64,000 nt of DNA, taken from assembly GCA_905381055.1 (NCBI GenBank), contig CAJPUR010000001.1, forward strand, positions 62,001-126,000, in the 5' to 3' direction. Source of the stretch: an uncultured Flavobacteriaceae bacterium. GTDB lineage: Bacteria; Bacteroidota; Bacteroidia; Flavobacteriales; Flavobacteriaceae. This document shows, one piece after another, positions 6,295-35,561 of the stretch. The stretch's first letter is position 1, and the number at the start of each line of letters is the position of its first letter. The notes under the pieces were generated by a model. The model searched no databases and was not told where the DNA came from. It saw nothing but the letters and a program-made list of their open reading frames with translations. Position numbers and translations under genes: made by a program.

Positions 6295-7335
6295 ATGCGT
6301 GACATAAAATATCTTTTTGCCTATACTATTCCAGTTTCTGTTTTATTGAGTATTGAATTACGGGGAGCTTTTTCATTTTCTGCATTCCTTTATGCATATG
6401 GGGTAATCCCATTATTCGAATTAATAATTAAACCAAATCATTCACATGAGTCAGATAACAGAAAATTATCAAAATTCAAGAATTTATTATTTGATTTAAT
6501 GCTATATTTCAATCTCCCTATTGTTTTTTTTACTTTAGGTTATGGTTTTTCGGTTTTAAATTCAAAAACTCTGTTTTTTTATGAACAAATTGGAATAGTA
6601 TTTTCATTAGCCATTTTACTTGCCACAAATGGTATAAATGTAGCACATGAGTTAGGTCATAGAAAATCTTTAATTGAAAAAGTTTTTTCTAAAACTTTAT
6701 TAATGTTTAGCTTATATATGCATTTTTTCATTGAACACAACTTAGGACATCATAAAAATGTTGGGACTAATTTAGATCCTGCTTCTGCAAAACTAAATCA
6801 AAACCTTTATAATTTTTGGTTTACCTCAACTATAGGTCAATATAAAAATGCTTGGGGAATTCAATTAAAAAAACTTTCAGGGTATAATTTCTTTTCATTG
6901 AAAAATGAAATGTTAATTTACAGTTTAATACAAATTGGATATTTGTTTTTGTTATTTCTGTTTTGGGGATTTTCAGGGTTATTTTATGGAGTAACTGTTG
7001 CAGTTATTTCTTTTTTAATGCTTGAAACAATAAATTATATTGAGCACTATGGGTTAAGAAGAAGTAGACTTCCTTCAGGGAGGTTTGAAAGAGTTAATCC
7101 TTCCCATTCATGGAATTCAAATCATCAAATTGGAAGAATTGTACTTTATGAACTTACAAGACATAGTGATCATCATTATAAGAGCTCAAAAAAATATCAA
7201 CATTTAGAAAACATTGTTGAAAGTCCTCAACTTCCTTATGGTTATCCAGCTTCAATGCTTTTAGCTTCACTTCCTTTTTTATGGTTTTCAATTATGAATA
7301 AGCATATTGAAAAATACAATTCATCTTTGAGTTAG
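6295..7335 (+). CDS. alkB: AlkB-type alkane 1-monooxygenase
   Basis: Membrane di-iron hydroxylase of 346 residues with six or so hydrophobic segments. The histidine clusters that bind the iron pair are all present: HELGHRK near residue 119, EHNLGHHK near 146, NYIEHYGLRR near 246 (the NYxEHYGL signature typical of alkane hydroxylases) and HSDHHYKSSKKYQ near 285. It would hydroxylate a terminal methyl carbon using O2 and electrons from a rubredoxin. No rubredoxin or rubredoxin reductase gene is visible in the window. A TAATTTTG box lies 22 bases ahead of the start. Chain-length range is unknown. Confidence 0.9.
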   Translation: MRDIKYLFAYTIPVSVLLSIELRGAFSFSAFLYAYGVIPLFELIIKPNHSHESDNRKLSKFKNLLFDLMLYFNLPIVFFTLGYGFSVLNSKTLFFYEQIGIVFSLAILLATNGINVAHELGHRKSLIEKVFSKTLLMFSLYMHFFIEHNLGHHKNVGTNLDPASAKLNQNLYNFWFTSTIGQYKNAWGIQLKKLSGYNFFSLKNEMLIYSLIQIGYLFLLFLFWGFSGLFYGVTVAVISFLMLETINYIEHYGLRRSRLPSGRFERVNPSHSWNSNHQIGRIVLYELTRHSDHHYKSSKKYQHLENIVESPQLPYGYPASMLLASLPFLWFSIMNKHIEKYNSSLS

Positions 7336-7865
7336 AATATTGCGAAAACCAAAATAAGAAAAATAATATAACATAATAAAGATCTCAAAAGTGCTTTAAT
7401 ACCTTTGTTTACATTAGAAAATTTAGCAAATGCAATATGTCCAGTCACGTATATCATTTGAGTAAGATGTTTATGATACTCTTCTTTATTATCCATTAAA
7501 TTGTCTAAGGTCTTGTAATATGAGTCAAAATCATTATACTTCGTACCGATATCTCCAAAAAATAGAGGGGACTTTTGTGTCGAAATATTTAATCTAGGGA
7601 GGAAACATTTAATACAAAAAATTAAGGCCCTTATAGTAAAAAAAAAGCCTGGGAGAAGAAAAAATAGTGAAATGACATGAACTATATTATTCATATCAAG
7701 CGCATATGAGTTTTCATCATCCAAGATATCTATTGTATAGGCTATTGAGAAAAATAAACTATAAATAGATATTACAATACTTGCTTTAACCTCAGCGTAT
7801 CTAATTTGATCATAATTATAGTTAATTATTTCCCAAAAATTACTTATTTCAGTGTACTTATTCAT
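7332..7865 (-). CDS. PycTM-like (DUF5706-type) membrane protein
   Basis: The 177-residue protein has two hydrophobic segments in its first 95 residues (about 30-45 and 65-90) and one at the C-terminus (about 155-177). The pattern YAEVKASIVISIYSLFF near residue 22, then PLFFGDIGTKY near 103 and YYKTL, HKHLTQMIYVTGHIAFAKF and KGIKALLR resembles the transmembrane effector domain of Pycsar anti-phage systems (PycTM). In those systems a cyclase makes cCMP or cUMP and the effector disrupts the membrane. No cyclase is adjacent, so this is either an orphan or a homologue with another task. It overlaps the convergent alkB end by 4 bases. Confidence 0.55.
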   Translation of the reverse strand: MNKYTEISNFWEIINYNYDQIRYAEVKASIVISIYSLFFSIAYTIDILDDENSYALDMNNIVHVISLFFLLPGFFFTIRALIFCIKCFLPRLNISTQKSPLFFGDIGTKYNDFDSYYKTLDNLMDNKEEYHKHLTQMIYVTGHIAFAKFSNVNKGIKALLRSLLCYIIFLILVFAIF

Positions 7866-14358: not shown

Positions 14359-14371
14359 TAATTAAATATTT

Positions 14372-14442
14372 CAAACATAAATTCAAATTACATAAACTTT
14401 AAATTAAATTAATCAATTTCTTTAATCCAAACATAAATTCAA
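14372..14442. repeat. 15-base direct repeat in a divergent promoter region
   Basis: CAAACATAAATTCAA occurs at 14372-14386 and again at 14428-14442, exact over 15 bases and 56 bases apart. Both copies are in the 119-base space between the divergent LtaS-like and DUF1080 genes, the place for a shared operator. Confidence 0.7.
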
Positions 14443-14477
14443 GCAATTTTATATATTTGAAAAAAATCAATAACAAA

Positions 14478-15233: not shown

Positions 15234-15234
15234 A

Positions 15235-16578: not shown

Positions 16579-18022
16579 AATCTTTAATTCTGTACTTCAA
16601 TTGATCAGGAGTTGAATCTTGGACATCTTTTAAATGATTTTCAAGAGATTTTAACATATCAATTACAACTTCCTGATTTTTATCAGATATATCATATTTT
16701 TCAGAAAAATCTGTGCTTAAATCATATAATTCGGGGCTATCTAATTTGATTGTAGGGCTTCCATAATTTACTGGTTGTCTTTGCTTAATATGTAATTTTA
16801 AATTATTTTTTCTAACAGCATGTAATTCGGCAAAACCCCAATAATAAAAAATATCCCTCGGACTTGAATCTAAATGAGTTAAAACTTTAGACAAATCGAA
16901 ACCATCCATTTTTCTATCATTCGGTAAATCTAAACCAGCCATACTCGAAAAAGTATTAATAATATCAAGAGTTGATCCCATTTCATGAACAACGCCTGGT
17001 TTTACTTTGCTAGGTCCCCAAAAAATTGTAGGAACTCTTTGACCCCCTTCAAAAGTTGTACCTTTACCCGCTCTTAAAGGTCCTGCTGAACCTCCATGTT
17101 TTTCATATCTTAACCATGGACCGTTATCTGAGCTGAATAAAACCACAGTGTTTTTATCTAAATTATTTTCTTTTAAAGCGTTTAAAACCTCACCCACACT
17201 CCAGTCAATTTCTTCAATAACATCTGAATAAAGACCTCCTGAACTAGATCCCAAGAAATCATCTGAAGCATATAATGGAATGTGAGGCATACTATGAGCT
17301 AAATAAAGAAAGAAAGGTTGATTTTTATTGTTATTAATAAATTCAATAGCTTTTTGAGTGTATCGCTTTGTAATAGTTTTTTGATCTGCCGGACGTTCAA
17401 TAACTTTTTTATTTTCAATTAAAGGAACCTGAAATACTTCTTTATCAGGTTCATAATTTTCATCATCTCTTGTTTTTTGAAAATAAACCCCCATGCTTTC
17501 AACTTTAGAATTTTTTGAAAAATGTTGTGGAGACTGAGTTTTACTATCCATATCATTGGAATATGGAATCCCATAGTATGAATCAAAACCCTGTTCTTGT
17601 GGTAAAAATTCAGGTAGGTGCCCTAAATGCCATTTTCCTATAGCTGCGGTTTTATATTTTTTTTCTTTTAAAATTTCTGCAATAGTAATCTCTTTAGATT
17701 TTAAGCCCTTGGAAGAAAAAGGAAAAAAGACAGGTAACTCTGATGATGTCATGCCAGATCTAATAGGGTATCTTCCAGTAAGAAGTGCCGCCCTACTTGG
17801 AGTACAAACTGGATCAGCAACATAAAACTGTGTCCATTTTTGACCTTCGTTTGCCATTCTATCTAAATTTGGAGTTTTAATAATTGGATTACCAAAAATA
17901 CCCAAATCACCATACCCTAGATCATCACAAAAAATAATGATAAAATTTGGTATACTATCTTTTTGCGCATAAATATTAAAATGCACAAATGAAATAAAAA
18001 TTATAAAAAAAAATCTTAACAT
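16568..18022 (-). CDS. Exported sulfatase (CTPSR type)
   Basis: First gene of the sulfatase pair, 484 residues, with a signal peptide ending near residue 19. It shows NFIIIFCDDLGYGDLGIFG, the formylglycine motif ADPVCTPSRAALLTGRYP (about 69-86), GKWHLGHLPEF, SMPHIPLYAS and FSSDNGPWLRYE. The arylsulfatase A-like layout suggests a periplasmic sulfatase acting on carbohydrate. Its sequence differs clearly from the second sulfatase, so the pair may remove sulfates at different positions. A PQQ-dependent dehydrogenase lies upstream on the same strand after 144 bases. Confidence 0.92.
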   Translation of the reverse strand: MLRFFFIIFISFVHFNIYAQKDSIPNFIIIFCDDLGYGDLGIFGNPIIKTPNLDRMANEGQKWTQFYVADPVCTPSRAALLTGRYPIRSGMTSSELPVFFPFSSKGLKSKEITIAEILKEKKYKTAAIGKWHLGHLPEFLPQEQGFDSYYGIPYSNDMDSKTQSPQHFSKNSKVESMGVYFQKTRDDENYEPDKEVFQVPLIENKKVIERPADQKTITKRYTQKAIEFINNNKNQPFFLYLAHSMPHIPLYASDDFLGSSSGGLYSDVIEEIDWSVGEVLNALKENNLDKNTVVLFSSDNGPWLRYEKHGGSAGPLRAGKGTTFEGGQRVPTIFWGPSKVKPGVVHEMGSTLDIINTFSSMAGLDLPNDRKMDGFDLSKVLTHLDSSPRDIFYYWGFAELHAVRKNNLKLHIKQRQPVNYGSPTIKLDSPELYDLSTDFSEKYDISDKNQEVVIDMLKSLENHLKDVQDSTPDQLKYRIKDYGK

Positions 18023-22729: not shown

Positions 22730-22738
22730 TATACAATA

Positions 22739-23161
22739 ATGAATAAAGAAAGAGTAAACTTAAAGGGTGTTATTGCAGGTAATTTTGATGTAATTCATCC
22801 TGGATATATTAAAATGTTTAAAGAATGTAGCGAAAAATGTGATAAATTATACGTTCTTCTTCACTCTGACCCATCTATTGAGAGAAAGCACAAGCTTCCT
22901 CCAATTTTAAATGTTGAGGAAAGAACGGAAATCTTATTATCTCTAAGATACATTGATGAAATTTTGGTATATACATATGAATCTGAACTTTATGATATTT
23001 TGAAGAATGGTGATTTTCATATTAGGTTTTTAGGGGATGATTACATTAATCAGTCATACACTGGAGATGATTTAAAAATACCAATTCATTTTTTAAATCG
23101 ATCTCATGGTTGGAGTACTACAAAATTTAAAAATTTAATTGCTGATTCAGTTAAAAAATAA
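22739..23161 (+). CDS. TagD/RfaE-like nucleotidyltransferase
   Basis: Small Rossmann-fold cytidylyltransferase-like enzyme of 140 residues, a normal length for the family. The N-terminal nucleotide-binding segment is VIAGNFDVIHPGYIKMF (about 11-27), where the usual HxGH reads HPGY. It also has VLLHSDPSIERKHK, PILNVEERTEILLSLRYID and the C-terminal HGWSTTKFK, in place of the ISTT-type loop. It would join a nucleotide to a small phosphate such as glycerol-3-phosphate or a sugar phosphate. Its position, 9 bases after otsAB and 3 before the GH15 gene, ties it to trehalose or polyol metabolism, but the substrate is unknown. Confidence 0.75.
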   Translation: MNKERVNLKGVIAGNFDVIHPGYIKMFKECSEKCDKLYVLLHSDPSIERKHKLPPILNVEERTEILLSLRYIDEILVYTYESELYDILKNGDFHIRFLGDDYINQSYTGDDLKIPIHFLNRSHGWSTTKFKNLIADSVKK

Positions 23162-23164
23162 CTT

Positions 23165-24946
23165 ATGCATGATTCAAATAATTTAGAACTTGGAATAATT
23201 GGAAATTGTCATTCAACAGCTTTAATTTCTAAAAAAGGTTCAATCGATTGGTGTTGCCTACCTGAATTTGATTCTCCTTCAGTTTTTGGAAAGATTTTGG
23301 ATGATAATATTGGAGGTACCTTTGAAATCATTTGCGATAATAATTATATTATTGAACAGAAATACCTCAAAAATACTTGTATTTTAGTTACAAAATTTTC
23401 AAGTGGTAAAAATATCTTTGAGATCCATGATTTTATGCCAAGATATTTAAAAAAAGATAATAAATATTATTCTCCCGCTGAGGTAATTCGATATTTCAAA
23501 TTAATATCAGGAAGCCCTAAATTTAAAATTAATTATGACCCCAGGCTAGAGTATTCTAGTTGTGTAACTGACACTTTTATAAAAGACGAATTTATTGTTA
23601 GTATTACAAGGGAAACTAATTACGATAGTCTTTACTTATATACAAATTTTGACAAAAAATCTGTTGTTGAAAATTCCGAAATAATCTTGAAATCGGATGG
23701 GTACTTTTCAATTTGTTATAACGAAAAAATTAAACCTCAATCTTTAAATGAAGTCTTTTCTGAATTAACTAGAACACACATTTACTGGTTGAATTGGTGT
23801 TCAATTACACCATCTTTTTCTGAGTATGAAAATGATATAATAAGGAGTGCTATGACACTCAAACTTTTAACCTATGATAAAACTGGAGCAATACTTGCTG
23901 CAGCAACTACATCTATTCCTGAAACAGTCGGAGAGGTTAGAAATTGGGATTATCGTTTTTGTTGGATCAGGGATGCTTCAATGGTTATTAGAGTAGTTCA
24001 CGAGTTGGGTCACAAAAATGTAATTAGAAGATATTTAGAGTACATAATAAATTTGATTCCAGATAAAGGAGAAAACTTTCAAATTATGTATGGTATTAAT
24101 CGGGAAAAAGAATTGACTGAAAAAACACTTAATCATCTTTCTGGATATAAAAACTCAAAACCTGTTAGAATAGGTAATGCTGCATTTAATCAACAGCAAA
24201 ATGATATTTATGGAGTTCTAATGGATATTATTTATACTGAAGTTAAGTTATTTTCGGACGTTGAAGATCAACATGAACAATTATGGTCTATTACGAAAAA
24301 TGTTGCTTGGGTAATCAATGATAAATGGATGACACCGGATAAAGGAATTTGGGAGTTCAGAGGAGAAGATCAACATTTTACATTTTCAAAAGTATTATGT
24401 TGGGTTGCAATTGATAGAGCAATAAAAGTAGCTGAATTATTTAAAAAAGATAAAAAAAATAAAAAATGGATTTTATTACGGGATAGAATTAAAAAAGATA
24501 TCTTTTTTAAAGGGTGGAATAAAAAAAAGAGAGCCTTTACCCAATCATATAACTCATCAGATTTAGATGCATCGGTTTTATTAATGGAACCTTATGGATT
24601 TATAAGTGCAAATGACCCTAAATATATAAGCACTGTGCATGCAATTGAAAAAGAATTATCTAATGATGGCCTTTTGTATAGATATAAAAATGAAGATGAT
24701 TTTGGATTACCAAGCTCTTCATTTACAGTTTGCACATTTTGGTTTATTGATGCCTTAAATAAAATTGGAGAAAGGCAGAAAGCTAAAAAATTATTTGATA
24801 AATTACTTTCCTATAGTAATCACTTGGGACTTTTCAGCGAGGACCTTGACTTTAAGACAAAAGAACTACTTGGAAATTTTCCGCAAGCTTATTCACATTT
24901 AGCATTAATAGAAACGGCTATGAACTTAAATAAAACAAAAAGTTAA
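23165..24946 (+). CDS. Glycoside hydrolase family 15 protein (trehalase/glucoamylase type)
   Basis: Cytoplasmic enzyme of 593 residues with no signal peptide. It starts with the bacterial GH15 N-domain signature (LGIIGNCHSTALISKKGSID, WCCLPEFDSPSVFG) and carries the (alpha/alpha)6 barrel from about residue 225: PETVGEVRNWDYRFCWIRDA, the general-acid segment GIWEFRGEDQHFTFSK and, near the end, LLGNFPQAYSHLALIETA. GH15 members act on trehalose, maltose or starch. Location behind otsAB suggests trehalose hydrolysis to glucose, so synthesis and breakdown may share one operon. The stop overlaps the convergent gene by 4 bases. Confidence 0.9.
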   Translation: MHDSNNLELGIIGNCHSTALISKKGSIDWCCLPEFDSPSVFGKILDDNIGGTFEIICDNNYIIEQKYLKNTCILVTKFSSGKNIFEIHDFMPRYLKKDNKYYSPAEVIRYFKLISGSPKFKINYDPRLEYSSCVTDTFIKDEFIVSITRETNYDSLYLYTNFDKKSVVENSEIILKSDGYFSICYNEKIKPQSLNEVFSELTRTHIYWLNWCSITPSFSEYENDIIRSAMTLKLLTYDKTGAILAAATTSIPETVGEVRNWDYRFCWIRDASMVIRVVHELGHKNVIRRYLEYIINLIPDKGENFQIMYGINREKELTEKTLNHLSGYKNSKPVRIGNAAFNQQQNDIYGVLMDIIYTEVKLFSDVEDQHEQLWSITKNVAWVINDKWMTPDKGIWEFRGEDQHFTFSKVLCWVAIDRAIKVAELFKKDKKNKKWILLRDRIKKDIFFKGWNKKKRAFTQSYNSSDLDASVLLMEPYGFISANDPKYISTVHAIEKELSNDGLLYRYKNEDDFGLPSSSFTVCTFWFIDALNKIGERQKAKKLFDKLLSYSNHLGLFSEDLDFKTKELLGNFPQAYSHLALIETAMNLNKTKS

Positions 24947-25713
24947 ATAGAGATATTTAGTCCATACATTATGTTTGAATCATTCACGTCACCTTTAACG
25001 TACTGAATTGAAGAAGATCTACTTGTATATCTGAGAAAAATAGAAATATTTTTATTGATTGCGTATGTTAGGTATGAATTTAAATAAACTCTTATGTCTT
25101 CAAAGTCTTTTAGATTCCATTGCGAATATATAGTAGTCATTAAAGAAACATCATCAGTTATTTTAAGATTAGAGAAAGCATTAATAGATAATCTGAAGTT
25201 ATATTTAGTAAATGATTCATAATTGACTTGATTATATGTATATGATGGATATTTTTCAATTTCATAAAAAGGGCCATAGGCAAAATCTAAATAATTAGAT
25301 TCTTTACTTAAAAATCTATTTCTAACTCCAAATCCAAACAAATTTCTAGAGTCAAGTGAAGCTCTAAGACTTTTACCTAATTGAAGAAATGAAAAGATTG
25401 AATTGTTCTCTTTATAAAAGTAATTATAGCGAAATTGTCCACTAATATTATTGTCAAAAAGTATTCCGTTAAATTTTGTTAATGAGTTTTCGAAAGTGAA
25501 TCTAAATAGATTCTTATCGATTTTTTGACCCATAGTTAAATTGGAATTTAAAATTTGCATTTTAAGGTTACCTTTAGTTGACAAACCAGAAAATGATCCA
25601 AACACATGAAAGGTTGAATCTATTTTTTTTAGGTTTGCTTCAGTATCAATAATTGTTTGAGAATAACCAGAAATACTAATTATTAAAAATAAAATATTAA
25701 TTAATTTTTTCAT
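24943..25713 (-). CDS. Exported beta-rich protein, unknown function
   Basis: The 256-residue protein has a signal peptide (KKLINILFLIISISGYSQ). The rest is made of alternating hydrophobic and polar stretches with many Tyr, Phe and Asn, such as GQFRYNYFYKENNSIFSFLQ and ISIFLRYTSRSSSIQYVKGD, which fits a small outer-membrane beta barrel with roughly ten to twelve strands. I recognise no family. It ends convergently with the GH15 gene and is divergent from the phosphatase receptor gene across a 203-base region that holds a strong dyad. Confidence 0.6.
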   Translation of the reverse strand: MKKLINILFLIISISGYSQTIIDTEANLKKIDSTFHVFGSFSGLSTKGNLKMQILNSNLTMGQKIDKNLFRFTFENSLTKFNGILFDNNISGQFRYNYFYKENNSIFSFLQLGKSLRASLDSRNLFGFGVRNRFLSKESNYLDFAYGPFYEIEKYPSYTYNQVNYESFTKYNFRLSINAFSNLKITDDVSLMTTIYSQWNLKDFEDIRVYLNSYLTYAINKNISIFLRYTSRSSSIQYVKGDVNDSNIMYGLNISI

Positions 25714-25916: not shown

Positions 25917-28900
25917 ATGTTTTTTAGACACTTTTTATTTAAAATAATTTTTTCTTTAATTTTATTATTATCTAACAAAATTTTTTCTCAAAACTCCTCA
26001 GATTTCATTTACCAGGAACTAGGAAATTATGTAATTAAAAATTATGACAATACTTTCTTAGATCGACCTGAATCAATATGGTCTATAATAAAATCAAGAA
26101 ATGAGAATCTTGTTTATTATGGAACATTCAATGGTATTATTGAATACGATGGTAATAAGATCAGAAAAATTAATGTTCAAGGTCAAATTGAAAATGAAGT
26201 TGGAAGCGAATATGTTCGAAATATGATTCAAACAGAATCGGGTGAAATATTTGTATCAGGAGCTTCTGTTTTGGGAGTTCTTCTAAATAATGAATTTGCC
26301 TCTAAAGAATATGTCTCTTTACTTACTCAAATACCAGATTCAATTAATCCTTATCAGCAAAACTTTCTTGGAATTAAAGAGTTTAACAATAAAATTTATT
26401 CTACTACACCTGAGAAGATATATAGATGGGATGGTCAACAATTTGATAAAATTTGGGGATTTAGTGATTATGAAGGAAGTATAAATTCAAAAGGGAAACT
26501 CCATTTTTTATTCAAAGTTGGTGATCGTTTGTTTATCAGGCAGTGGGGTGTTGGATTACTTGAATTAATTGATGACAAATTTCAATTTATTGAAGGTTCT
26601 GAATTTTATTCAAATAATAGAATTGAATTAATGTTTGCTTCATCAGAAAATCAAATTTCTATTTTTAGTAGTACTAATGGGGCCTTTATATTAAATAATG
26701 ATGGGACTTTTGTCAAATCTAAGAATAGGCTTTTAAATAAATGGTTAATTGAATCTAAAGTCCAATATGTTTCTGAGTTGCCTTCATTTTCTGATGGATC
26801 AATTCCAATTATTTCAAATGATGGAATTTTAATTTTAGATAATAATTTGGGAATAATTAATTTAATAGATGAATCTGACGGGCTGCTGTCTAGTCAAATT
26901 ACTTCAATGTTTATTGATGATAATGACGATATGTTTATAACTAATCTTCTCAGTTCTGCAAAAATTGATTTTGACAATTCATTAACAGAATTTGACAGAA
27001 CTGAAGGGGTTAAAGGAGTTGTCACTAAGATAAGAAGACTTAATAACCAGATTTATTTCTCAACCACTGAAGATATTTTTTCGTTAAAACCTAATAATGA
27101 TCCCTTTGAAAATGCTTCAATTAATGAAATAGGTTTAGATGATTATGTGAGAGATTTTACAAGTTTTAATAATTCAATTGTTTCCACAAACAATTATGGT
27201 GTTGTTGAGTATAATAAAAAAAATATAAACAAAGTTACTTCTGATAGAGATATTAATCTACCAACACAAAGCAAATTAAATAAAGATTTTTTAATTATTT
27301 CGCATCCCTCTGATGGTATAGTATTGTTAAAGAAAAATAAAAATGGTATTTTAAAAAAATTTAAATCTTCAAAACCCGCTTCTGATGTAGGAGTTACAGG
27401 TTTTAGAGAAATTAAACCAGGTAGTATTTACGTTGAGGCTTCAGACGGAGAGGGCTCTTTTATAGCTGAATATGATTTAAGAGGAAATTTTAAATATCGA
27501 AGGTTGCTTACTCCTAAGAATGACAGTTTATATAAATCATTAAATCTTCCAAAAACATTAATTTTTAATAGTGATTTGTTAGATTATTTTTCAGAACCAT
27601 TATTAAGTATTTTTAAAACTGGTGTTGGATATTTACTTTTTGATTTAATTGAAACCAAAATTTACAGATTTGATGAAAATCTAAATCTATTGGAATTAAA
27701 TAAAAACATGTCTGAAATTTTTGGAAAAGGAATAAATTTCAATTATTTCAATGTTATTAATGGCATTGATCAGTTTACTGCTTTAAATGAGGAAACAGGT
27801 AATAATTGGTTTCTTACTGACCAGGGAATGATTGAAGTTAAATTTGATAAATTAAGTTATAAAATTTTAAATCTTTTCAATTACGGTAAAATTGATATAA
27901 ATGAACTTAAAGGTTCATTTTTTGTTGAGACTAAAAATGGTATTGAAACAATTTGGTTGGGATCCAAAGATTCAAAGTTGATAAGGTGGTCACCAAAGAC
28001 AAATTTGAATTTATCTAGTAACGTTCCTAATCCATTAATTAAAGAAATTTATCTTGGTGATAAACTTCATAATGTTTATGAATCGTCAATAAGTTATGAT
28101 GATAGTAGAAGTATGACATTTAATCTAGCTTTTCCTTCATTTAATAAAGAAGAAAACAACCAATACCGTGTATTTCTAGAAGGTCAAGATGAACAATGGA
28201 GTTCCTGGAATAATAATGCTGAAAGATCATACACTAATTTGGGAGTAGGTAATTTTAATTTTTTAATTCAAGCAAAAGATACTAATGGAAATGAAAGTGA
28301 GATTATATCATATCCTTTTCAAATCAATCCTCCTTTTTATAGAACCTACTATGCATGGTCTTTATATTTTTTAATTTCAGTAATATCAATTTATATTTTC
28401 AATAAGTTTATGACTAAACGACTTCTTGCTAGGCAAGACAATAAAAGAAAAGCAGATGAACTAGAGGAGGCAAAAGAAATGCAACAAAATATGTTGCCAA
28501 AAATATTTCCTCAATCAGAACATTTTGAAATTTCCGCTGGACTTATTACTTCAACAGAAGTTGGTGGTGATTATTATGATTTTTTCGAATCGAATAAGGG
28601 TGAATTGTTTGCGGTTTGTGGAGATGCTACAGGACATGGAACAACATCAGGGATGATGGTTTCAATTATTAAATCAGCATTAAACAGTTTGCCTTCGTTG
28701 CCAGTAAATAAAATCTTAGAGGAATTAAATAGAATCGTAAAGAAAATTGATTTAAAAAGAATTAAAATGAGTTTGGCAATTGCTGAGATTAAAAAAGATC
28801 AATTAGTAATGAGTGCAGCGGCTATGCCTCCAATTTATTTTTATAATGCTAAAAAGAAAGAATGTGAAGAGATTTTAATTCAAGGAATTCCTCTCGGAGG

Positions 28901-29162
28901 TTTAAAGAATGAAACTTATCACATTGTAGTTAAGGATTTTGATAAAAATGATATTATTGTAATGCTTTCAGATGGTTTGCCTGAGGCCATAAATAAAAAC
29001 AATGAGATGTATGACTACGAAAGATTGAGAGAGTTTATCCTCCAAAATATTTCAAAGTCTGCAGATGAAATAAAAGATCTTTTATTAAATGAACTAAATA
29101 ATTGGATGGATGGGGTAGTGCCTGATGATGACGTTACCTTTGTGGTTGTCAAGAAAAAATAA
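25917..29162 (+). CDS. Sensor with propeller, Y_Y_Y domain and SpoIIE phosphatase
   Basis: The 1081-residue protein has a signal peptide (about 1-24), a long periplasmic region that looks like a degenerate two-component-type propeller (about 30-700), a Y_Y_Y domain (about 725-798), one membrane helix (about 810-830), a short coiled linker with AKEMQQNMLP, and a PP2C-like SpoIIE phosphatase (about 860-1081). Metal-site residues are intact: GGDYYDFF with D885, GDATGHG with D903, MLSDGLPEA and DDDVTFVVV. It would sense a periplasmic signal and dephosphorylate a STAS protein. A STAS gene with its kinase lies 3 kb downstream. Confidence 0.88.
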   Translation: MFFRHFLFKIIFSLILLLSNKIFSQNSSDFIYQELGNYVIKNYDNTFLDRPESIWSIIKSRNENLVYYGTFNGIIEYDGNKIRKINVQGQIENEVGSEYVRNMIQTESGEIFVSGASVLGVLLNNEFASKEYVSLLTQIPDSINPYQQNFLGIKEFNNKIYSTTPEKIYRWDGQQFDKIWGFSDYEGSINSKGKLHFLFKVGDRLFIRQWGVGLLELIDDKFQFIEGSEFYSNNRIELMFASSENQISIFSSTNGAFILNNDGTFVKSKNRLLNKWLIESKVQYVSELPSFSDGSIPIISNDGILILDNNLGIINLIDESDGLLSSQITSMFIDDNDDMFITNLLSSAKIDFDNSLTEFDRTEGVKGVVTKIRRLNNQIYFSTTEDIFSLKPNNDPFENASINEIGLDDYVRDFTSFNNSIVSTNNYGVVEYNKKNINKVTSDRDINLPTQSKLNKDFLIISHPSDGIVLLKKNKNGILKKFKSSKPASDVGVTGFREIKPGSIYVEASDGEGSFIAEYDLRGNFKYRRLLTPKNDSLYKSLNLPKTLIFNSDLLDYFSEPLLSIFKTGVGYLLFDLIETKIYRFDENLNLLELNKNMSEIFGKGINFNYFNVINGIDQFTALNEETGNNWFLTDQGMIEVKFDKLSYKILNLFNYGKIDINELKGSFFVETKNGIETIWLGSKDSKLIRWSPKTNLNLSSNVPNPLIKEIYLGDKLHNVYESSISYDDSRSMTFNLAFPSFNKEENNQYRVFLEGQDEQWSSWNNNAERSYTNLGVGNFNFLIQAKDTNGNESEIISYPFQINPPFYRTYYAWSLYFLISVISIYIFNKFMTKRLLARQDNKRKADELEEAKEMQQNMLPKIFPQSEHFEISAGLITSTEVGGDYYDFFESNKGELFAVCGDATGHGTTSGMMVSIIKSALNSLPSLPVNKILEELNRIVKKIDLKRIKMSLAIAEIKKDQLVMSAAAMPPIYFYNAKKKECEEILIQGIPLGGLKNETYHIVVKDFDKNDIIVMLSDGLPEAINKNNEMYDYERLREFILQNISKSADEIKDLLLNELNNWMDGVVPDDDVTFVVVKKK

Positions 29163-29164
29163 AC

Positions 29165-29557
29165 CTAGTTTTGACCATATGCAGAAAAGCTAACATTTTT
29201 TTTCGCCTCAGCAGCATAATTTTTTTTTGTATTATTAGTTGAATATGAAGATGAAATTTCAACCTCTTTTTTATCCTCTTCTTTTACTCTGTTTCTAGTG
29301 TTTTTTGTAGGATCATAATTCCCATAACTTGAATAATTAGCATTTTCATTTTTGACTTTTTCATACTTTTTAGAATTGCTATTAGCAACAGTTCCACCTC
29401 CGTAGGAATTAGTAATGTTTGAAGAATTGGCTTTTTTAAAAGAGTCTGAGCTAAAAGCAGCTTTAGAACTTGTGGACTTGGTTTCTGAAGTTTCTGAGCA
29501 AGAAACTACTAAAAATGAGATAAAAAAATAAAATAAAATCCTAAAATTCATAATCAT
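29165..29557 (-). CDS. Small low-complexity lipoprotein
   Basis: A 130-residue protein with a lipoprotein signal (FFISFLVVSC, Cys near residue 20). An alternative start is the ATG at 29551. The mature part is almost entirely Ser, Asn, Lys, Tyr and Glu, with short motifs such as SSYGNYD, SSYSTN and FSAYGQN, and likely disordered. I recognise no family. Its stop is 2 bases from the convergent phosphatase receptor stop. It is followed upstream by two paralogous lipoprotein genes on the same strand. Confidence 0.55.
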   Translation of the reverse strand: MIMNFRILFYFFISFLVVSCSETSETKSTSSKAAFSSDSFKKANSSNITNSYGGGTVANSNSKKYEKVKNENANYSSYGNYDPTKNTRNRVKEEDKKEVEISSSYSTNNTKKNYAAEAKKNVSFSAYGQN

Positions 29558-29627
29558 TAAACAAATATATTATAATAACAATTTATTTTCAATTTAATTT
29601 TTTATTTTTTATTAAAAAAATTAATAA

Positions 29628-30635
29628 TTATTTCACTCTCACGCTTAAATGTCCGGTTGATTCTTCTCCAACTTCCTCCCAAACTAAACCTGATCCATCT
29701 TCACTTGGGACAGCTCTTGTTCTAAAAACTTGAATAAATGTATCATCATCAATCCAATCAATATCATAATAAGTATCAGGCCAAATGTTTCCCTTTGGCA
29801 TCCAGTTTCCAGTTCCAAGGGTAAATTTTTCCATTAATTCCTGCTTATCGTTATTATACTCATAGGTTCCAGCTAGACCAGCTCCACCCCATACTTGATT
29901 GCCTTTTTCAGCTAATGTAGGGTCCCAATTCACAATAACATTTCCTTTGTGAAAAATTTTATGGTCGTCTAATCCCTCAGCTACAGCAGTTGTATCAATC
30001 GGAACACCATTAACATATCTTACATTAGCAATATGATTCCAGACACCGTCTATTTTTGTCTTTTCACCTTCAGGAATTTTTTCATAATATTCAGCATATT
30101 CCGTTGTGTTACCTAAAGTTTCTTCACTCATAACAAAAATAGAATCATTTTCCTCCGATCTAACACCAAGTTGAGTATAGTTTTTTTCGGTTACAGTAGC
30201 TGCAAAATTTATCGAAACTGAACCATTTTTTCTAAGATCATCCCAAGGAGTCCAGGTAACTGCGTTACCAATAGCATTTGTAATTGTTTCAACCATATTG
30301 TCTGCATTTTTACTTTTAGAGTTAAAGGTGTAAGTACCATAAGCACCAGCACCAGTTTTCCAAGGAAAATCTTTATTTTCAGGCTGATTAATACCTGCGT
30401 TTGAAAGCCATGCAAAATGATTTCCTGTATATGCTTTAATTTGTCTTTCTTTATTCTCAAGTTCTAAATCATCCCAAAAAATTGTATCAACATTAACGCC
30501 TTTAACAATTTGGATAGTTCCAACTCTTTCCCAAAATCCTATCATTGGAGACTGATCAGGTAAATCAGATTTTTTTTGTTCTCCTCCACATGAGATGAAT
30601 AATGTTATAATTACTAGTAATAATAATTTTTTCAT
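29628..30635 (-). CDS. Duplicated-domain lipoprotein, copy B
   Basis: Lipoprotein of 335 residues (LFISC lipobox, Cys16). Two related modules follow, starting GFWERVGTIQIVKGVNVDT near residue 33 and GVWNHIANVRYVNGVPIDT near 197. Each module of about 150 residues looks beta-rich, with a central KAYTGNHFAW or KIFHKGNVIV type strand, a Gly/Ala-rich turn (GAGAYGTY, GGAGLAGTY) and a YAEYYEKIP-like end. The layout is reminiscent of lipocalin-like sandwiches, but I recognise no named family. The start is 1 base from the stop of the paralogue upstream, so both are in one operon. Confidence 0.65.
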   Translation of the reverse strand: MKKLLLLVIITLFISCGGEQKKSDLPDQSPMIGFWERVGTIQIVKGVNVDTIFWDDLELENKERQIKAYTGNHFAWLSNAGINQPENKDFPWKTGAGAYGTYTFNSKSKNADNMVETITNAIGNAVTWTPWDDLRKNGSVSINFAATVTEKNYTQLGVRSEENDSIFVMSEETLGNTTEYAEYYEKIPEGEKTKIDGVWNHIANVRYVNGVPIDTTAVAEGLDDHKIFHKGNVIVNWDPTLAEKGNQVWGGAGLAGTYEYNNDKQELMEKFTLGTGNWMPKGNIWPDTYYDIDWIDDDTFIQVFRTRAVPSEDGSGLVWEEVGEESTGHLSVRVK

Positions 30636-30636
30636 T

Positions 30637-31605
30637 TTAATTTACTTTTATATAATATTCACTTGACTGGTTTTCACCCCCAGGCCATCTTTGACTGTAG
30701 GAGTTTTCGGTTAAATTTACTTCAAATGATATGTAGGGTTCTCCATATCTGTCTTTGTCTGGAAGATTTTTGAAAAAGTTTTCCATGTTATGCATTCCAT
30801 AATCGATTCTTTCTGTAAGAATTCCATTTTCATATTCAAAATTTCCATAACTTGCCCCACCGTAAAACCCAGCTTTGTCAGGGTCACTCATGGTGAAATT
30901 TCTATTAAAAAGCATGAACTTTCCATTATGATAAAATTTATAGTTAATAAAGTCCTCACCTTTAATTGGAATCGTATCAACTGCAACATTATTTATATAT
31001 TCAATTGTTGCAACCCTTTTATAAACTCCATCAAGTTCGGATTCTGAAACTTGAGGGATTTTAAGCCAATATTCAGCAAACTTAGTATCTGGAGTTTCTT
31101 GATTTACAAAACTCCCAAACTGAACAAATTCTCCTTCATTTAAATCAATTTTTGCTTTCCATGTTACAGTTTTATTAATTGTATCTCTTGAAGTCCAGGA
31201 CCATTCATCATTAAACCCATTAACCTCTAATCCAGTCCTTCCACCAAAACCGCATTCAACAATTTCGTGCAAACTATCATTTTCAATCTTATATTTTCCA
31301 AAAATCCCCTGGCCACTTGTCCATGGAGCTTTTTGATTTTGTGGTTTAAAGTTATCAATCCATATATGAAATCCGTCTAAAAATAATTTAGTAGCCCTAA
31401 AACCCTCAACAGTTGAAACAGTATCAACAGCTACATTATTTACATATTGTATCGTACCAGCTCTTTCATAATAGCCAGTTAGCGTTTTAACATTTTCTTG
31501 ATTCGAGGACTTTTCATTAGAAATGTTATCACAAGAAGATATCAATAAAAAGAATAAAGAAGCTATTAAAGCTTTTGTTGTATTTGACATATCATTTATT
31601 TTCAA
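30637..31605 (-). CDS. Duplicated-domain lipoprotein, copy A
   Basis: Lipoprotein of 322 residues (LISSC lipobox, Cys25), paralogue of the next gene. Modules start GYYERAGTIQYVNNVAVDT near residue 44 and GVYKRVATIEYINNVAVDT near 192, so the repeat length is about 148. Shared later motifs are FLDGFHIW or FYHNGKFMLF and the turn GQGIFGKY or GGASYGNF. Function unknown; likely periplasmic or outer-membrane anchored. An alternative start is the second Met at residue 6, which leaves a better signal peptide. The upstream region holds AATTGTAAT, also found in the inverted repeat at 50295. Confidence 0.65.
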   Translation of the reverse strand: MKINDMSNTTKALIASLFFLLISSCDNISNEKSSNQENVKTLTGYYERAGTIQYVNNVAVDTVSTVEGFRATKLFLDGFHIWIDNFKPQNQKAPWTSGQGIFGKYKIENDSLHEIVECGFGGRTGLEVNGFNDEWSWTSRDTINKTVTWKAKIDLNEGEFVQFGSFVNQETPDTKFAEYWLKIPQVSESELDGVYKRVATIEYINNVAVDTIPIKGEDFINYKFYHNGKFMLFNRNFTMSDPDKAGFYGGASYGNFEYENGILTERIDYGMHNMENFFKNLPDKDRYGEPYISFEVNLTENSYSQRWPGGENQSSEYYIKVN

Positions 31606-31836
31606 AATACAAAAATATCAATTTACTTGAAATAAAATAATTACAATTGAAATTTTATATTTTAAATTTTATAAAAAAGATTTGTATTTTTTGAATCTGT
31701 GAATTTTTTTTAGTAAAAAATATTGATAATTCATTTTTTTAAAATTAATTTGTATCTTGAATTTTTAGTTTACTTTTCAAACAAATTCAAATAAAATGTT
31801 TATTATTATATAATATTTAATAAAATAAACAGAACT

Positions 31837-32256
31837 ATGAGTAAAAATCCGAGTGTAGAATTGAAGTTGCCCATATTAAAAAACATGGAGCTTATTGCTA
31901 CTCAAACTGCCGAAGTTGTATCTAAGCATATGGCTCTTTCCGAAGAAAAAGCTGGAGAAATTTCTATGGCAATTATAGAAGCTTGTATTAATGCATTTGA
32001 ACATTCAAATTCAAAAGAAGAAATTTTTATTCACTTTATAATTTCAGAGGACAACTTAACAGTAAAAGTAATTGACCAAGGAGTTGGTTTTGATGCCACT
32101 CAAGTAGCAATTCCAGATATTGACAATAAACTGAATACTACCGAGAGAAAAAGAGGTTGGGGAATAATGCTTATCAAAGAGTTAATGGATTATGTTCATT
32201 TTACCTCTGATTCTTCTGGTACAACATTAACTATGGTAAAAAATAAAGAAAAATAA
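31837..32256 (+). CDS. RsbW-like anti-sigma/serine kinase
   Basis: GHKL-fold ATP-binding protein of 139 residues, typical for the anti-sigma kinase family. The N box reads EACINAFEH with E48 and N52, the G1 box VIDQGVGFD and the G2 box KRGWGIMLIKELMD. In partner switching such proteins phosphorylate a STAS protein and hold a target until the STAS protein is dephosphorylated. Its TAA overlaps the ATG of the STAS gene by one base (TAATG), implying translational coupling. No sigma factor gene is nearby, so the target may be something else, such as the cyclase downstream. Confidence 0.85.
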   Translation: MSKNPSVELKLPILKNMELIATQTAEVVSKHMALSEEKAGEISMAIIEACINAFEHSNSKEEIFIHFIISEDNLTVKVIDQGVGFDATQVAIPDIDNKLNTTERKRGWGIMLIKELMDYVHFTSDSSGTTLTMVKNKEK

Positions 32257-32597
32257 TGAGTAAAATTTTAAACGTAGAAGAAGCAAACGGACTTGTTATA
32301 ATATCTACTCAAGGCTATCTTAATAAAGATTTAGGCGAGGAAATTCAAAAAGTCTGTAATGAATTTGTTGATAAAGGCACAACTAGTTTTTTGTTTAATT
32401 TAAGCCAGTCTAATATTGTTAATAGTATTGGGGCTTCAATAATCATTGAAGTTATTGAAAGTCTTCAAGAAGTTGACGGTGATTTAGCTTTTTGTGAATT
32501 AGCTCCAATTATTGAAAAAACATTCAATATTATGGGACTAACAAAATATTGTAAAACTTTTAGTTCCCAAAAAGAAGCTTTAGAAGCATTAAGTTAA
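32256..32597 (+). CDS. STAS-domain antagonist
   Basis: Single STAS domain of 113 residues, the size of RsbV/SpoIIAA. The phosphorylation loop reads IVNSIGASIIIEV with S57 in the place of the serine phosphorylated in SpoIIAA, so it can act as the switchable partner. It lies between the kinase gene (1-base overlap) and the cyclase gene, which starts directly after its stop codon. It probably binds the kinase when dephosphorylated by a SpoIIE-type phosphatase, such as the receptor encoded 3 kb upstream. Confidence 0.85.
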   Translation: MSKILNVEEANGLVIISTQGYLNKDLGEEIQKVCNEFVDKGTTSFLFNLSQSNIVNSIGASIIIEVIESLQEVDGDLAFCELAPIIEKTFNIMGLTKYCKTFSSQKEALEALS

Positions 32598-34547
32598 ATG
32601 TCTGATTTATCAGAAGTTTACAACGTTTTAAAAAAAAAAAAGTCACTTAAGGCTAAGATTATCTCCCTTTCCTTTTTTTTTAAACAAAATGATTTTTCTT
32701 TCAAGTTGTTTTGTTCTTCAAGTGTTTTTTCTGAGAGATTTGAAATACAAGATCAGACTTTCATTAAGAAAATTGATTTCCAAAATCTTTTTGGTGAGGA
32801 AACTTTTAAAATTCTTAGCGAAAAAGATTTATTATATCTTAATGAACTTGACGGATTCAATTTTCAAAAAAATGGGGTTTGTTCTATAATGTATTTTTTT
32901 AAAAAACCCGTAGGTTTTTTATACTTAAATTCAAAAAACGAGAGTGAGGAAAAACTTTTAAACATATTACAATTTTTAAGCTATTATTTTGATGGAATCA
33001 TAAGACAATTCCATATGGAATCAAAGCTTAAAAATAAGACATTGACATTACAAAATAAATTATTGGAGATAGAATCTATTTTTAATATCACTGAGCTTTT
33101 AAATTCTTACAATACTAATTCAAATGATTTATATCAAGATATATTATTATATGTTATATCAACATTAAATGCCTCTAAGGCTATAATTCTATTAAAAAAT
33201 ACTAAATCAAGTTCATATGAACTAATTGCTTCGATTGGGATTGATTCTGATGAATTAAATAAAAAGATGATAAGGGATACTAAAGGTATCTTAAATGATT
33301 TAAAAAATTCTAAATCATCACTTATTATAAATAATACCGATGACTTTATACTTTCTAAATTTTCTGAATTAAATTGTATGGCAAGTCCCATTTTAAGTCA
33401 AAATATTCTTCATGGGGCAATAATTGCTTATGATAAAGAATCAAGAGATGGATCATCAATGTTTGATAATTTTGATTTAAGGTTATTCGATAACATAACT
33501 AAAAAAATCAGTTTGTCCTTTGATAATATCCTTTTGTTGGAGTCATTAACGGAATCTAAAAAATCAATAGACAATATAATGTCTTCAATTTCAACAGGAA
33601 TAATTAAAATTGATGTTTTAGGAGAAATTGATTATACAAATTTATCTGCAACTAAAGTATTTGGTTTCAATAAAGATTTAATTATTGGTAATCATTACTT
33701 CATTGTATTTGAGGGAAATGTCAACTTAATTAAATTAATTGAAAAGACTGAGTCAGAAAAGGAAATAATTTTTGAAAATAATTTTGAGATTCTAGATTTA
33801 AATAATAAATCTCATCAAATTAACTTAACTATTTCTCCCGTTTTTGACGAAAACAACCAGAACTCAGGTGTTGTATTGTCATTTGAGGATTTATCAGGTA
33901 TAAATAAGGTTAAGTCAACTTTTAAAAAATATGTCTCTGAAAATATTGTAGATGAACTTTTAAAAAATGAAAATTCACTCGAATTGGGAGGTAAAGAAGA
34001 AGAAGTTTGTGTAATGTTTGCTGATATTAGAGGATTTACTTCATTATCTGAAAAAATGGATGCTCCTAAAGTTGTTTACGTTCTTAATAATTATTTTCAA
34101 TCAATGATCGATGTTATATTTAAGTATTCTGGAACTTTAGATAAAATTATAGGAGATGAATTAATGGTTTTATATGGTGTTCCAATTAAAGCTGAAAATG
34201 ACTGTCAGAATGCTGTTGATTCAGCTATTTCAATGTTAGATTCATTAAAAGATTTTAATAAAAAAATGAAGCTTGAAGGTTTACCTGAACTAAATATTGG
34301 TATCGGAATTAATTTTGGAAAGGTTGTTTCTGGAAATATTGGATCTAAACAACAAATGAATTACACTGTTATTGGTGACAATGTCAATTTAGCCGCAAGA
34401 TTATGCTCTAGTGCTAAAGGTGGTGAAATTTCTATCTCTAAGTCTGTTTATGAAAATTTAAAAATAAAAGATGGATTTACTAAAAGGGAACCAATTAAGG
34501 TTAAAGGAAAAGAAATTCCTGTAGATAATTGGTCAATACAAAACTGA
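32598..34547 (+). CDS. GAF-PAS class III adenylate cyclase
   Basis: The 649-residue protein has an N-terminal region (1-150) of unclear fold, a GAF domain (about 160-320), a PAS domain (about 325-445) and a class III cyclase domain (about 455-645). Both metal aspartates are present (FADIRGF, D476; IIGDELM, D520). The pair K516 and D594 fits ATP rather than GTP, and N597 and R601 complete the active site. No membrane segment is seen. It ends the kinase-STAS operon. Codons 11-15 contain a run of 12 A (32630-32641), which could cause frameshifts. Product is predicted as cAMP. Confidence 0.88.
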   Translation: MSDLSEVYNVLKKKKSLKAKIISLSFFFKQNDFSFKLFCSSSVFSERFEIQDQTFIKKIDFQNLFGEETFKILSEKDLLYLNELDGFNFQKNGVCSIMYFFKKPVGFLYLNSKNESEEKLLNILQFLSYYFDGIIRQFHMESKLKNKTLTLQNKLLEIESIFNITELLNSYNTNSNDLYQDILLYVISTLNASKAIILLKNTKSSSYELIASIGIDSDELNKKMIRDTKGILNDLKNSKSSLIINNTDDFILSKFSELNCMASPILSQNILHGAIIAYDKESRDGSSMFDNFDLRLFDNITKKISLSFDNILLLESLTESKKSIDNIMSSISTGIIKIDVLGEIDYTNLSATKVFGFNKDLIIGNHYFIVFEGNVNLIKLIEKTESEKEIIFENNFEILDLNNKSHQINLTISPVFDENNQNSGVVLSFEDLSGINKVKSTFKKYVSENIVDELLKNENSLELGGKEEEVCVMFADIRGFTSLSEKMDAPKVVYVLNNYFQSMIDVIFKYSGTLDKIIGDELMVLYGVPIKAENDCQNAVDSAISMLDSLKDFNKKMKLEGLPELNIGIGINFGKVVSGNIGSKQQMNYTVIGDNVNLAARLCSSAKGGEISISKSVYENLKIKDGFTKREPIKVKGKEIPVDNWSIQN

Positions 34548-34592: not shown

Positions 34593-35561
34593 ATGAAAGT
34601 TAGAAATTTAATTGCAGTATTTATTATAAATATGAACTTTACAATTAGTCAAGATTCTTTTGTTTCATATAATGAAAACATTAATGGTACAGAATACTCA
34701 TTTAAAATGATTCCAGTAAATGGAGGTATATTTCAAATGGGAAGTCTAAAAAATGAAGTTGGAAGATTTATTGATGAAGGGCCAGTCAACAGAGTTGAAG
34801 TTTCTTCTTTTTGGATTGGAGCCTATGAAGTGACATGGGAATTATATGAACTTTTTGTTCAAAGATCAATTGATGACATTGTAAATAATAATAAATCTGA
34901 TGAAATTTCAATTGATGTTGATGCTATAAGTGGAGCCACTACTCCTTATACTGATATGACTTTTGGAATGGGTTCAGAGGGGTTTCCTGCAATATGCATG
35001 ACACAATTGGCAGCATCTAAGTTTTGTGAATGGTTGTCAGCAATTACAGGGAATTATTATAGACTTCCGACTGAAGCTGAATGGGAATATGCATGTAAGG
35101 CAGGCACTAATTCAAAATTTTCATTTGGAGATGATGTAGGTTTGTTAAATGAATATGCATGGTTTTCTGAAAATAGTGGAGAAAAATATCAAAAAGTTGG
35201 TACAAAAAAACCTAATCCCTGGGGAATTTATGATATGCATGGTAATGTTTCTGAATGGACTCTAGATCAATATATACCAGCGGCATATTTTAAGAGAAAA
35301 GGAGTTTCAAAAGATCCTCATGAAATAGCTGTTAAAGAATACCCAAGAGTTGTTAGAGGGGGATCATGGATAGATAATCCTGATAAATTAAGGTCGTCTG
35401 CAAGGACTGCCTCTAATTCAAAATGGAAAAAAAGGGACCCACAAATTCCAAAAAGCTTATGGTGGCACACTGATGCACCATTTGTTGGTTTTAGAATTGT
35501 AAGGCCCAAAGAATTGCCCAGTGAAGAAGAAAGAAAAAAATATTGGATCAATCCATCTTAA
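34593..35561 (+). CDS. FGE-sulfatase-fold protein lacking catalytic cysteines
   Basis: Exported 322-residue protein with a C-type lectin-like FGE/SUMF1 domain: MIPVNGGIFQMGS, FWIGAYEVTWELYELF, YRLPTEAEWEYACKAGT, WGIYDMHGNVSEWT, VVRGGSW and GFRIVRP. In true formylglycine-generating enzymes, two cysteines follow RGGS; here the text is RGGSWIDNPDKLRSSART, so they are absent. It is therefore unlikely to activate the sulfatases at 15-18 kb and may bind a ligand or serve another catalytic role. It precedes a Gfo/Idh/MocA gene by 17 bases, in an apparent operon. Confidence 0.85.
   Translation: MKVRNLIAVFIINMNFTISQDSFVSYNENINGTEYSFKMIPVNGGIFQMGSLKNEVGRFIDEGPVNRVEVSSFWIGAYEVTWELYELFVQRSIDDIVNNNKSDEISIDVDAISGATTPYTDMTFGMGSEGFPAICMTQLAASKFCEWLSAITGNYYRLPTEAEWEYACKAGTNSKFSFGDDVGLLNEYAWFSENSGEKYQKVGTKKPNPWGIYDMHGNVSEWTLDQYIPAAYFKRKGVSKDPHEIAVKEYPRVVRGGSWIDNPDKLRSSARTASNSKWKKRDPQIPKSLWWHTDAPFVGFRIVRPKELPSEEERKKYWINPS

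What the first reader, a model, noticed from the sequence alone, without database searches (positions are those of the whole stretch)
25917..34547. Partner-switching set that may control cAMP synthesis
A transmembrane SpoIIE phosphatase sensor, an RsbW-like kinase, a STAS protein with an intact phospho-serine (S57) and a class III cyclase with ATP-type residues (K516, D594) lie within 9 kb; the last three form a tight operon with 1-base overlap and zero-base spacing. No sigma factor is near. Inference: a periplasmic signal dephosphorylates STAS, frees or seizes the kinase, and so switches the cyclase on or off.
Basis: partly seen in the sequence, partly recalled or inferred. Interest (0 to 1): 0.7.

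Follow-up and report, generated by a model that had tools for sequence, protein, structure and literature searches.

The report
Phosphatase-kinase-STAS switch driving cAMP cyclase
Four neighbouring genes in a marine bacterium, found together again in about 80 related genomes, appear to form a switch that turns an outside signal into the messenger cAMP, and a membrane protein of a kind known from phage defence may be what reads that messenger.

Summary
A SpoIIE/PP2C sensor phosphatase (25917-29162), an RsbW-like kinase, a STAS protein with S57 and a class III cyclase (31837-34547) are all present. One correction: the substrate-specifying residue paired with K516 is T590, not D594; K/T is still an ATP-type pair. 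Kinase relatives were found at 80 named loci in Bacteroidota, Balneola and Marinimicrobia. STAS follows the kinase in 78 of 79, the cyclase is present in 76 of 76 with room, and SpoIIE genes lie at 73 of 80. S57 is invariant in 81 of 81. Neighbourhoods of other class III cyclases hold no kinase or STAS (0 of 21). This genome has one SpoIIE, one such kinase, one STAS protein and no sigma-B/F-like sigma factor. Best reading: a SiaABCD-like partner switch (known for c-di-GMP) rewired to a cAMP cyclase; dephosphorylated STAS probably acts on the cyclase. No Crp-type cAMP receptor was found here, so PycTM is a candidate receptor (inference). Which protein touches the cyclase, and in which direction, is unshown.

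The parts
25917..29162 (+). Sensor phosphatase, 1081 aa: signal/anchor helix 1-23, propeller ectodomain, Y_Y_Y 742-803, likely TM helix about 811-831, SpoIIE/PP2C domain (Pfam 894-1079) with D885, D888, D903, D1019, D1072
   Evidence: Pfam; AF2 pLDDT 83.5; Foldseek: BT4663 ectodomain 4a2l E 7.6e-32, PP2C best match SiaA 6k4e; catalytic residues conserved in about 90 homologues
31837..32256 (+). RsbW/SpoIIAB-type serine kinase, 139 aa, N-box E48/N52 and G boxes intact
   Evidence: HATPase_c_2 83 bits; N-box 82/82; nearest solved RsbW 6m36
32256..32597 (+). STAS protein, 113 aa, phospho-acceptor S57 in invariant VNSIG
   Evidence: STAS 43 bits; S57 81/81; aligns with SpoIIAA S58
32598..34547 (+). 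Class III cyclase, 649 aa: degenerate GAF-like 1-112, GAF 175-330, PAS 332-431, cyclase 463-648; D476, D520, K516, T590, N597, R601
   Evidence: Pfam; residues 75/75, D476 74/75 plus one X; AF2 pLDDT 82; Foldseek CyaC 1wc1 TM 0.9
7332..7865 (-). PycTM-family (Pycsar effector) membrane protein, 177 aa; orthologue of the PycTM genes beside this module in relatives; candidate receptor
   Evidence: 248.6 bits to the profile of module-associated PycTM; Pfam PycTM 39.5 over cut-off 27.2; clade 100/99
24943..25713 (-). DUF481 outer-membrane-type protein divergent from the sensor gene; recurs at 12 of 80 module loci; role unknown
   Evidence: Pfam; recurrence
29165..29557 (-). Small lipoprotein-like ORF between sensor and operon; kept in the sister genome
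   Evidence: Synteny in L033
29628..30635 (-). Lipoprotein with two repeats, paralogue of the next; kept at this position in the window-type arrangement
   Evidence: No Pfam match; recurs in 12 loci
30637..31605 (-). Second lipoprotein paralogue

Best explanation
A partner-switching module that controls a class III adenylyl cyclase. (1) A periplasmic signal, perhaps a glycan, reaches the BT4663-like propeller ectodomain and activates the cytoplasmic PP2C domain. (2) PP2C removes phosphate from STAS S57; the kinase puts it back. (3) The unphosphorylated STAS protein most likely binds the cyclase's GAF/PAS/linker region and raises cAMP synthesis, as SiaC does for the diguanylate cyclase SiaD. 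(4) cAMP then acts on something other than a Crp-type regulator, possibly the PycTM-family membrane protein at 7332-7865. The four-part module and its wiring as one unit are supported by conservation. Step 2 follows from family knowledge and intact catalytic residues. Step 3 rests on analogy and step 4 is inference. My odds: the module controls the cyclase about 0.85; through STAS rather than the kinase about 0.65; PycTM as the output about 0.4.
For: STAS directly follows the kinase in 78/79 loci with room and the cyclase follows STAS in 73/76 (3 more within a few kb), with overlaps typical of translational coupling. SpoIIE genes lie at 73/80 loci in at least three arrangements: directly upstream (33 loci), convergent and mostly overlapping the cyclase end by 4 bases (26), or upstream beyond lipoprotein genes as here. 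S57, kinase N-box and cyclase catalytic residues are invariant. Control cyclase neighbourhoods have no kinase or STAS in 21. This genome has one SpoIIE, one HATPase_c_2, one STAS and one such cyclase, so no other partner is on offer. No sigma-B/F-size sigma factor in 7 module genomes and no ORF similar to this genome's sigma factors in 1.22 Mb around 80 loci. Kinase, STAS and cyclase distances correlate at r about 0.89-0.90. SiaABCD has the same four-part logic (PMC7278518, PMC8457831), and the best solved PP2C match is SiaA. An HD hydrolase fused to the cyclase in 33/74 relatives fits nucleotide turnover.
Against: No interaction, phosphorylation or cAMP has been measured. The kinase is the most conserved part, which could mean it also touches the cyclase. 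Two loci with at least 7.5 kb on each side (L084, L132) have no SpoIIE gene, and L144 has kinase plus SpoIIE without STAS or cyclase. The cyclase has its own GAF/PAS domains that could be the main input. The 80 loci were found by exact kinase peptide patterns, so they favour close relatives.
Confidence: 0.65

Rival explanations
1. The kinase, not STAS, is the cyclase's partner: free kinase binds and inhibits (or activates) the cyclase, and dephosphorylated STAS pulls it away, as an anti-sigma factor is pulled off its sigma factor.
For: Moorella MtT, an RsbT-like kinase, binds and attenuates the diguanylate cyclase MtG (described in PMC7647112). The kinase is the best conserved protein (71-86% identity among seven Flavobacteriaceae orthologues).
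Against: In SiaABCD the kinase does not contact the cyclase, and HsbA-HsbD and BgrV-BgrR also work through STAS proteins. High kinase conservation is also explained by its contacts with STAS.
Confidence: 0.2
2. The phosphatase, kinase and STAS form an ordinary anti-sigma circuit acting on a distant sigma factor; the cyclase is merely co-transcribed.
For: Kinase resembles RsbW/SpoIIAB and STAS resembles SpoIIAA. In Chlamydia an Rsb network is reported to act on the primary sigma factor (abstract of PMC4552016).
Against: Only one RpoD-size and four ECF-size sigma factors in this genome, none sigma-B/F-like. No ORF similar to this genome's sigma factors at 80 loci. The cyclase is with the kinase and STAS at all 76 loci that could show it, across three FCB lineages.
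Confidence: 0.06
3. The module is an anti-phage Pycsar system: the cyclase makes a cyclic nucleotide on infection and the PycTM protein opens the membrane.
For: PycTM-family genes at 25 of 80 module loci and in this window; PADLOC PycC models hit the cyclase with 90 bits.
Against: PycC models hit class III cyclase domains in general. The active site is adenylyl-type (F474, K516, T590), not that of BcPycC or EaPycC, although AnPycC also has a K among its specificity residues. A periplasmic sensor, a phospho-switch, co-inheritance of the parts and PycTM 18 kb from the module here do not look like a defence island.
Confidence: 0.07

Closest known systems
SiaABCD of Pseudomonas aeruginosa (PMC7278518, PMC8457831, PMC7647112)
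   Same: Membrane PP2C phosphatase, switch kinase, phospho-switched STAS-fold protein and a nucleotide cyclase in one gene set. The sensor's PP2C model best matches SiaA among solved PP2C domains.
   Different: Output is a class III adenylyl-type cyclase, not a GGDEF diguanylate cyclase. STAS is PF01740 with a serine acceptor; SiaC is DUF1987 with phospho-Thr68. The kinase is RsbW-like. The sensor has a BT4663-type propeller ectodomain.
HsbRAD (P. aeruginosa) and BgrUVWR (Sinorhizobium meliloti)
   Same: A phosphorylatable STAS protein controls a cyclase.
   Different: Diguanylate cyclases; HsbR is a fused phosphatase-kinase; in Hsb the phosphorylated STAS is the activator.
RsbU-RsbV-RsbW-sigma B and SpoIIE-SpoIIAA-SpoIIAB-sigma F of Bacillus
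   Same: Same three switch proteins with the same catalytic and phospho-acceptor residues.
   Different: No sigma factor; a cyclase stands in its place.
Pycsar (PycC + PycTM)
   Same: Class III cyclase domain with a PycTM-family gene beside it in 25 of 80 loci.
   Different: Adenylyl-type active site, GAF/PAS input, partner switch, periplasmic sensor.
Hybrid two-component systems of Bacteroides (BT4663)
   Same: Predicted ectodomain fold and Y_Y_Y domain.
   Different: PP2C phosphatase instead of histidine kinase, receiver and DNA-binding parts.

Membership tests
Partner-switching (RsbU/V/W-type) systems | SpoIIE/PP2C phosphatase with metal aspartates | tested here: met
Partner-switching (RsbU/V/W-type) systems | HATPase_c_2 serine kinase with intact N-box | tested here: met
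Partner-switching (RsbU/V/W-type) systems | STAS protein with the phospho-acceptor serine | tested here: met
   S57 aligned with SpoIIAA S58; 81/81
Partner-switching (RsbU/V/W-type) systems | Phosphorylation-dependent exchange of partners | not testable with these tools
   needs biochemistry
Sigma B / sigma F modules | Cognate sigma-B/F-type factor linked or in the genome | tested here: not met
   1 RpoD-size + 4 ECF-size only; none at 80 loci; genome 91% complete
SiaABCD | Phosphatase, kinase, STAS-fold protein and cyclase encoded together | tested here: met
SiaABCD | SiaC-type DUF1987 switch protein and GGDEF cyclase | tested here: not met
   PF01740 STAS and PF00211 instead
Class III adenylyl cyclase | Two metal Asp, Lys + Asp/Thr for adenine, Asn + Arg transition-state pair | tested here: met
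   D476, D520, K516, T590, N597, R601
Class III adenylyl cyclase | cAMP formation | not testable with these tools
   needs assay; pyrimidine product not formally excluded
Pycsar | PycTM or PycTIR effector gene adjacent to the cyclase | tested here: inconclusive
   PycTM-family gene in the window but about 25 kb from the cyclase; adjacent in some relatives
Pycsar | Pyrimidine-selecting active site | tested here: inconclusive
   Differs from BcPycC and EaPycC residues, matches CyaC/CyaB; AnPycC also has a K
Stressosome RsbRST | RsbR/RsbS multi-STAS scaffold and RsbT | tested here: not met
   One single-domain STAS in the genome; kinase closest to RsbW

The most novel reading that the evidence does not exclude
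A widespread FCB-group sensory pathway in which an outside signal, through a phospho-STAS switch, sets the level of cAMP, and cAMP is read by a PycTM-family membrane protein (in other lineages perhaps by the TMEM175 or YitT proteins encoded directly after the cyclase) instead of by a Crp regulator. The Pycsar effector fold would then serve ordinary signalling with a purine messenger.
Probability: 0.3. Interest if true: 0.85.

Novelty: new variant of a known kind. Interest (0 to 1): 0.7.

Why it matters
Partner switches were known to govern sigma factors and, in a few cases, diguanylate cyclases. In the held paper library I found none that governs a class III adenylyl cyclase, and here it is a conserved module of Bacteroidota, Balneola and Marinimicrobia, mostly uncultured aquatic lineages. 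It offers a concrete input (propeller sensors, up to four phosphatase genes per locus), a concrete switch and a candidate output for cAMP in a genome where no Crp-type receptor was found. It also warns that defence-finding software may call such loci Pycsar.

Tried and rejected
Single-protein scan of genome contigs with the cyclase found nothing; the kinase alignment worked. The best cyclase hit outside the genus (G072, L035) is a GAF-PAS cyclase without switch genes. Crp-type receptor: cNMP_binding and HTH_Crp_2 gave nothing convincing in this genome or the sister; Crp-like proteins of other module genomes that I read (L168, L170) lack the cAMP phosphate-binding motif by eye. HD hydrolase homologue: absent here. 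Literature: eight targeted searches on partner switches and cyclases found no report of a partner switch on an adenylyl cyclase; the library is open-access only. Complex prediction of STAS or kinase with the cyclase was not possible with the tools.

Full report
What is there. The window comes from a 1.73 Mb, AT-rich genome (34 contigs, 91% complete); its nearest named relatives are marine Flavobacteriaceae. The four ORFs are as described: sensor phosphatase 25917-29162, then on the other strand a small ORF and two paralogous lipoprotein genes, then kinase 31837-32256, STAS 32256-32597 and cyclase 32598-34547, with a one-base overlap and zero spacing. Pfam and NCBIfam identify each. S57 is the SpoIIAA S58 position. 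The guanylyl cyclase Cya2 (2w01) differs at both positions. So 'ATP-type' stands, by a corrected argument.

One of each. This genome has one SpoIIE, one HATPase_c_2 kinase, one STAS and one such cyclase at E <= 1e-5. One sister genome (G298, 62% complete) keeps the whole 9 kb in order, lipoproteins included; another (G297), 91% complete, lacks the cyclase, kinase and STAS.

Conservation of the link. A kinase profile found exactly 7 of 397 genomes of the family, all with 240-308 bits, and all 7 carry STAS, cyclase and SpoIIE beside it. A scan of one genome per species gave 80 named loci at 57-86% kinase identity, in Flavobacteriaceae, Chitinophagaceae, Cytophagaceae, Marinoscillum and Flammeovirgaceae, Saprospiraceae, Balneola and Marinimicrobia; some MAG labels are doubtful. 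STAS follows the kinase in 78 of 79 and the cyclase follows STAS in 73 of 76, the other three having it a few kb off. PP2C genes lie at 73 of 80 loci, 17 of them with two to four hits. Arrangements differ: SpoIIE 3-86 bases upstream on the same strand (33 loci), convergent at the cyclase end, mostly with a 4-base overlap (26), or upstream beyond lipoprotein genes as in the window. A link kept through rearrangement is functional evidence. Only these four families recur at more than 26 of 80 loci. Twenty-one neighbourhoods of other class III cyclases in the order have no kinase, no STAS and one PP2C. S57 is invariant in 81, the kinase N-box in 82, and the cyclase catalytic residues in 75 sequences bar one masked letter.

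No sigma factor. Seven module genomes each have one RpoD-size and otherwise only ECF-size factors. No ORF similar to four of this genome's sigma factors lies in 1.22 Mb around the 80 loci.

Structure. The sensor model (pLDDT 83.5) matches the periplasmic domain of the heparin/heparan sulphate sensor BT4663 (E 7.6e-32), and its phosphatase domain best matches SiaA of P. aeruginosa among solved PP2C domains. Across the PP2C genes the linker and PP2C part stays about 37-50% identical while the N-terminal parts vary, from propellers to TPR types. This suggests many inputs onto one STAS substrate (inference). The cyclase model (pLDDT 82, low pTM) shows a degenerate GAF-like domain, GAF, PAS and cyclase. 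The first 150 residues are hardly conserved; the PAS and the linker before the cyclase (about 430-460) are, so the latter are the likelier docking surface (inference).

Mechanism. By analogy with SiaABCD, where dephosphorylated SiaC binds and activates SiaD and the kinase SiaB does not touch SiaD (PMC7278518; PMC8457831), I favour STAS as the cyclase's partner. HsbA-HsbD works in the phosphorylated state (PMC6482189), and Moorella MtT acts as a kinase on its cyclase, so direction and partner remain open.

Output. No cNMP-binding or convincing Crp-type protein was found here or in the sister; part of each genome is missing. Beside the module, 25 of 80 loci carry a PycTM-family gene (Pycsar effector, PF18967): convergent at the cyclase end (11 loci), divergent from the kinase (6), or on the strand of SpoIIE and a TPR lipoprotein gene with small gaps. 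Scanning the window with their profile gave one hit, 7332-7865 (-), 248.6 bits, close to module-associated members not used in the profile under those names (251-259; two of these four are the same sequences) and well above PycTM genes next to other cyclases (91-125); the tree agrees (100/99). The comparison set was collected from module neighbours, so the clade's purity is partly built in. In Chitinophagaceae-type loci a TMEM175 gene, and in Cytophagaceae-type loci a YitT gene, directly follows the cyclase. There the cyclase carries a C-terminal HD hydrolase (33 of 74); in the Marinoscillum group the homologous HD protein is a separate gene close to the kinase. HD metal residues look intact, which fits a phosphodiesterase (inference). 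This genome has no such homologue.

Verdict. A real, conserved partner-switch/cyclase module; a new variant of the SiaABCD kind of circuit, with an adenylyl-type cyclase as output. The sequence evidence shows the unit; it does not show the biochemistry.

Noticed in passing
window 7332-7865 (-): PycTM-family membrane protein, orthologue of PycTM genes beside the module in relatives, next to a fatty-acid desaturase gene; no cyclase beside it here.
   Followed up: partly
L102, L107, L116 and others (33 of 74 cyclases); L110:2528-3145, L118, L120, L123, L125, L136: HD hydrolase domain fused to the cyclase C-terminus in Chitinophagaceae/Cytophagaceae-type loci, and as a separate gene near the kinase in the Marinoscillum group.
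   Followed up: partly
L102:12909-13586 and 17 more; L116 and 12 more: TMEM175-type potassium channel gene, or YitT membrane protein gene, directly downstream of the module cyclase.
   Followed up: partly
L043, L044, L046, L056: PycTM-like genes directly beside other class III cyclases whose active sites read K/T or K/D, i.e. adenylyl-type, not obviously pyrimidine-type.
   Followed up: partly
L048:4422-14279: Five class III cyclase genes in tandem in one Flavobacteriales genome.
   Followed up: no
L144: Flavobacteria bacterium MS024-3C has the kinase with a convergent SpoIIE gene but no STAS or cyclase on the held 10.5 kb (contig edge just upstream).
   Followed up: no
L113:9992-13465: Two kinase-STAS pairs, each after its own SpoIIE gene, with a single cyclase further upstream.
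   Followed up: no
window 12439-18022 and 34593-35561: Three sulfatase genes and a formylglycine-enzyme-like gene near a sensor whose ectodomain resembles a sulphated-glycan sensor; a glycan signal is possible but untested.
   Followed up: no
window 29628-31605 and relatives (12 loci): Paired, repeat-containing lipoproteins without Pfam match between sensor and operon in the window-type arrangement.
   Followed up: no
window 20528-24946: Trehalose-phosphate synthase/phosphatase, cytidylyltransferase-like and glucoamylase-like genes upstream, named by reading the sequence; not beside the sensor in the sister genome.
   Followed up: no
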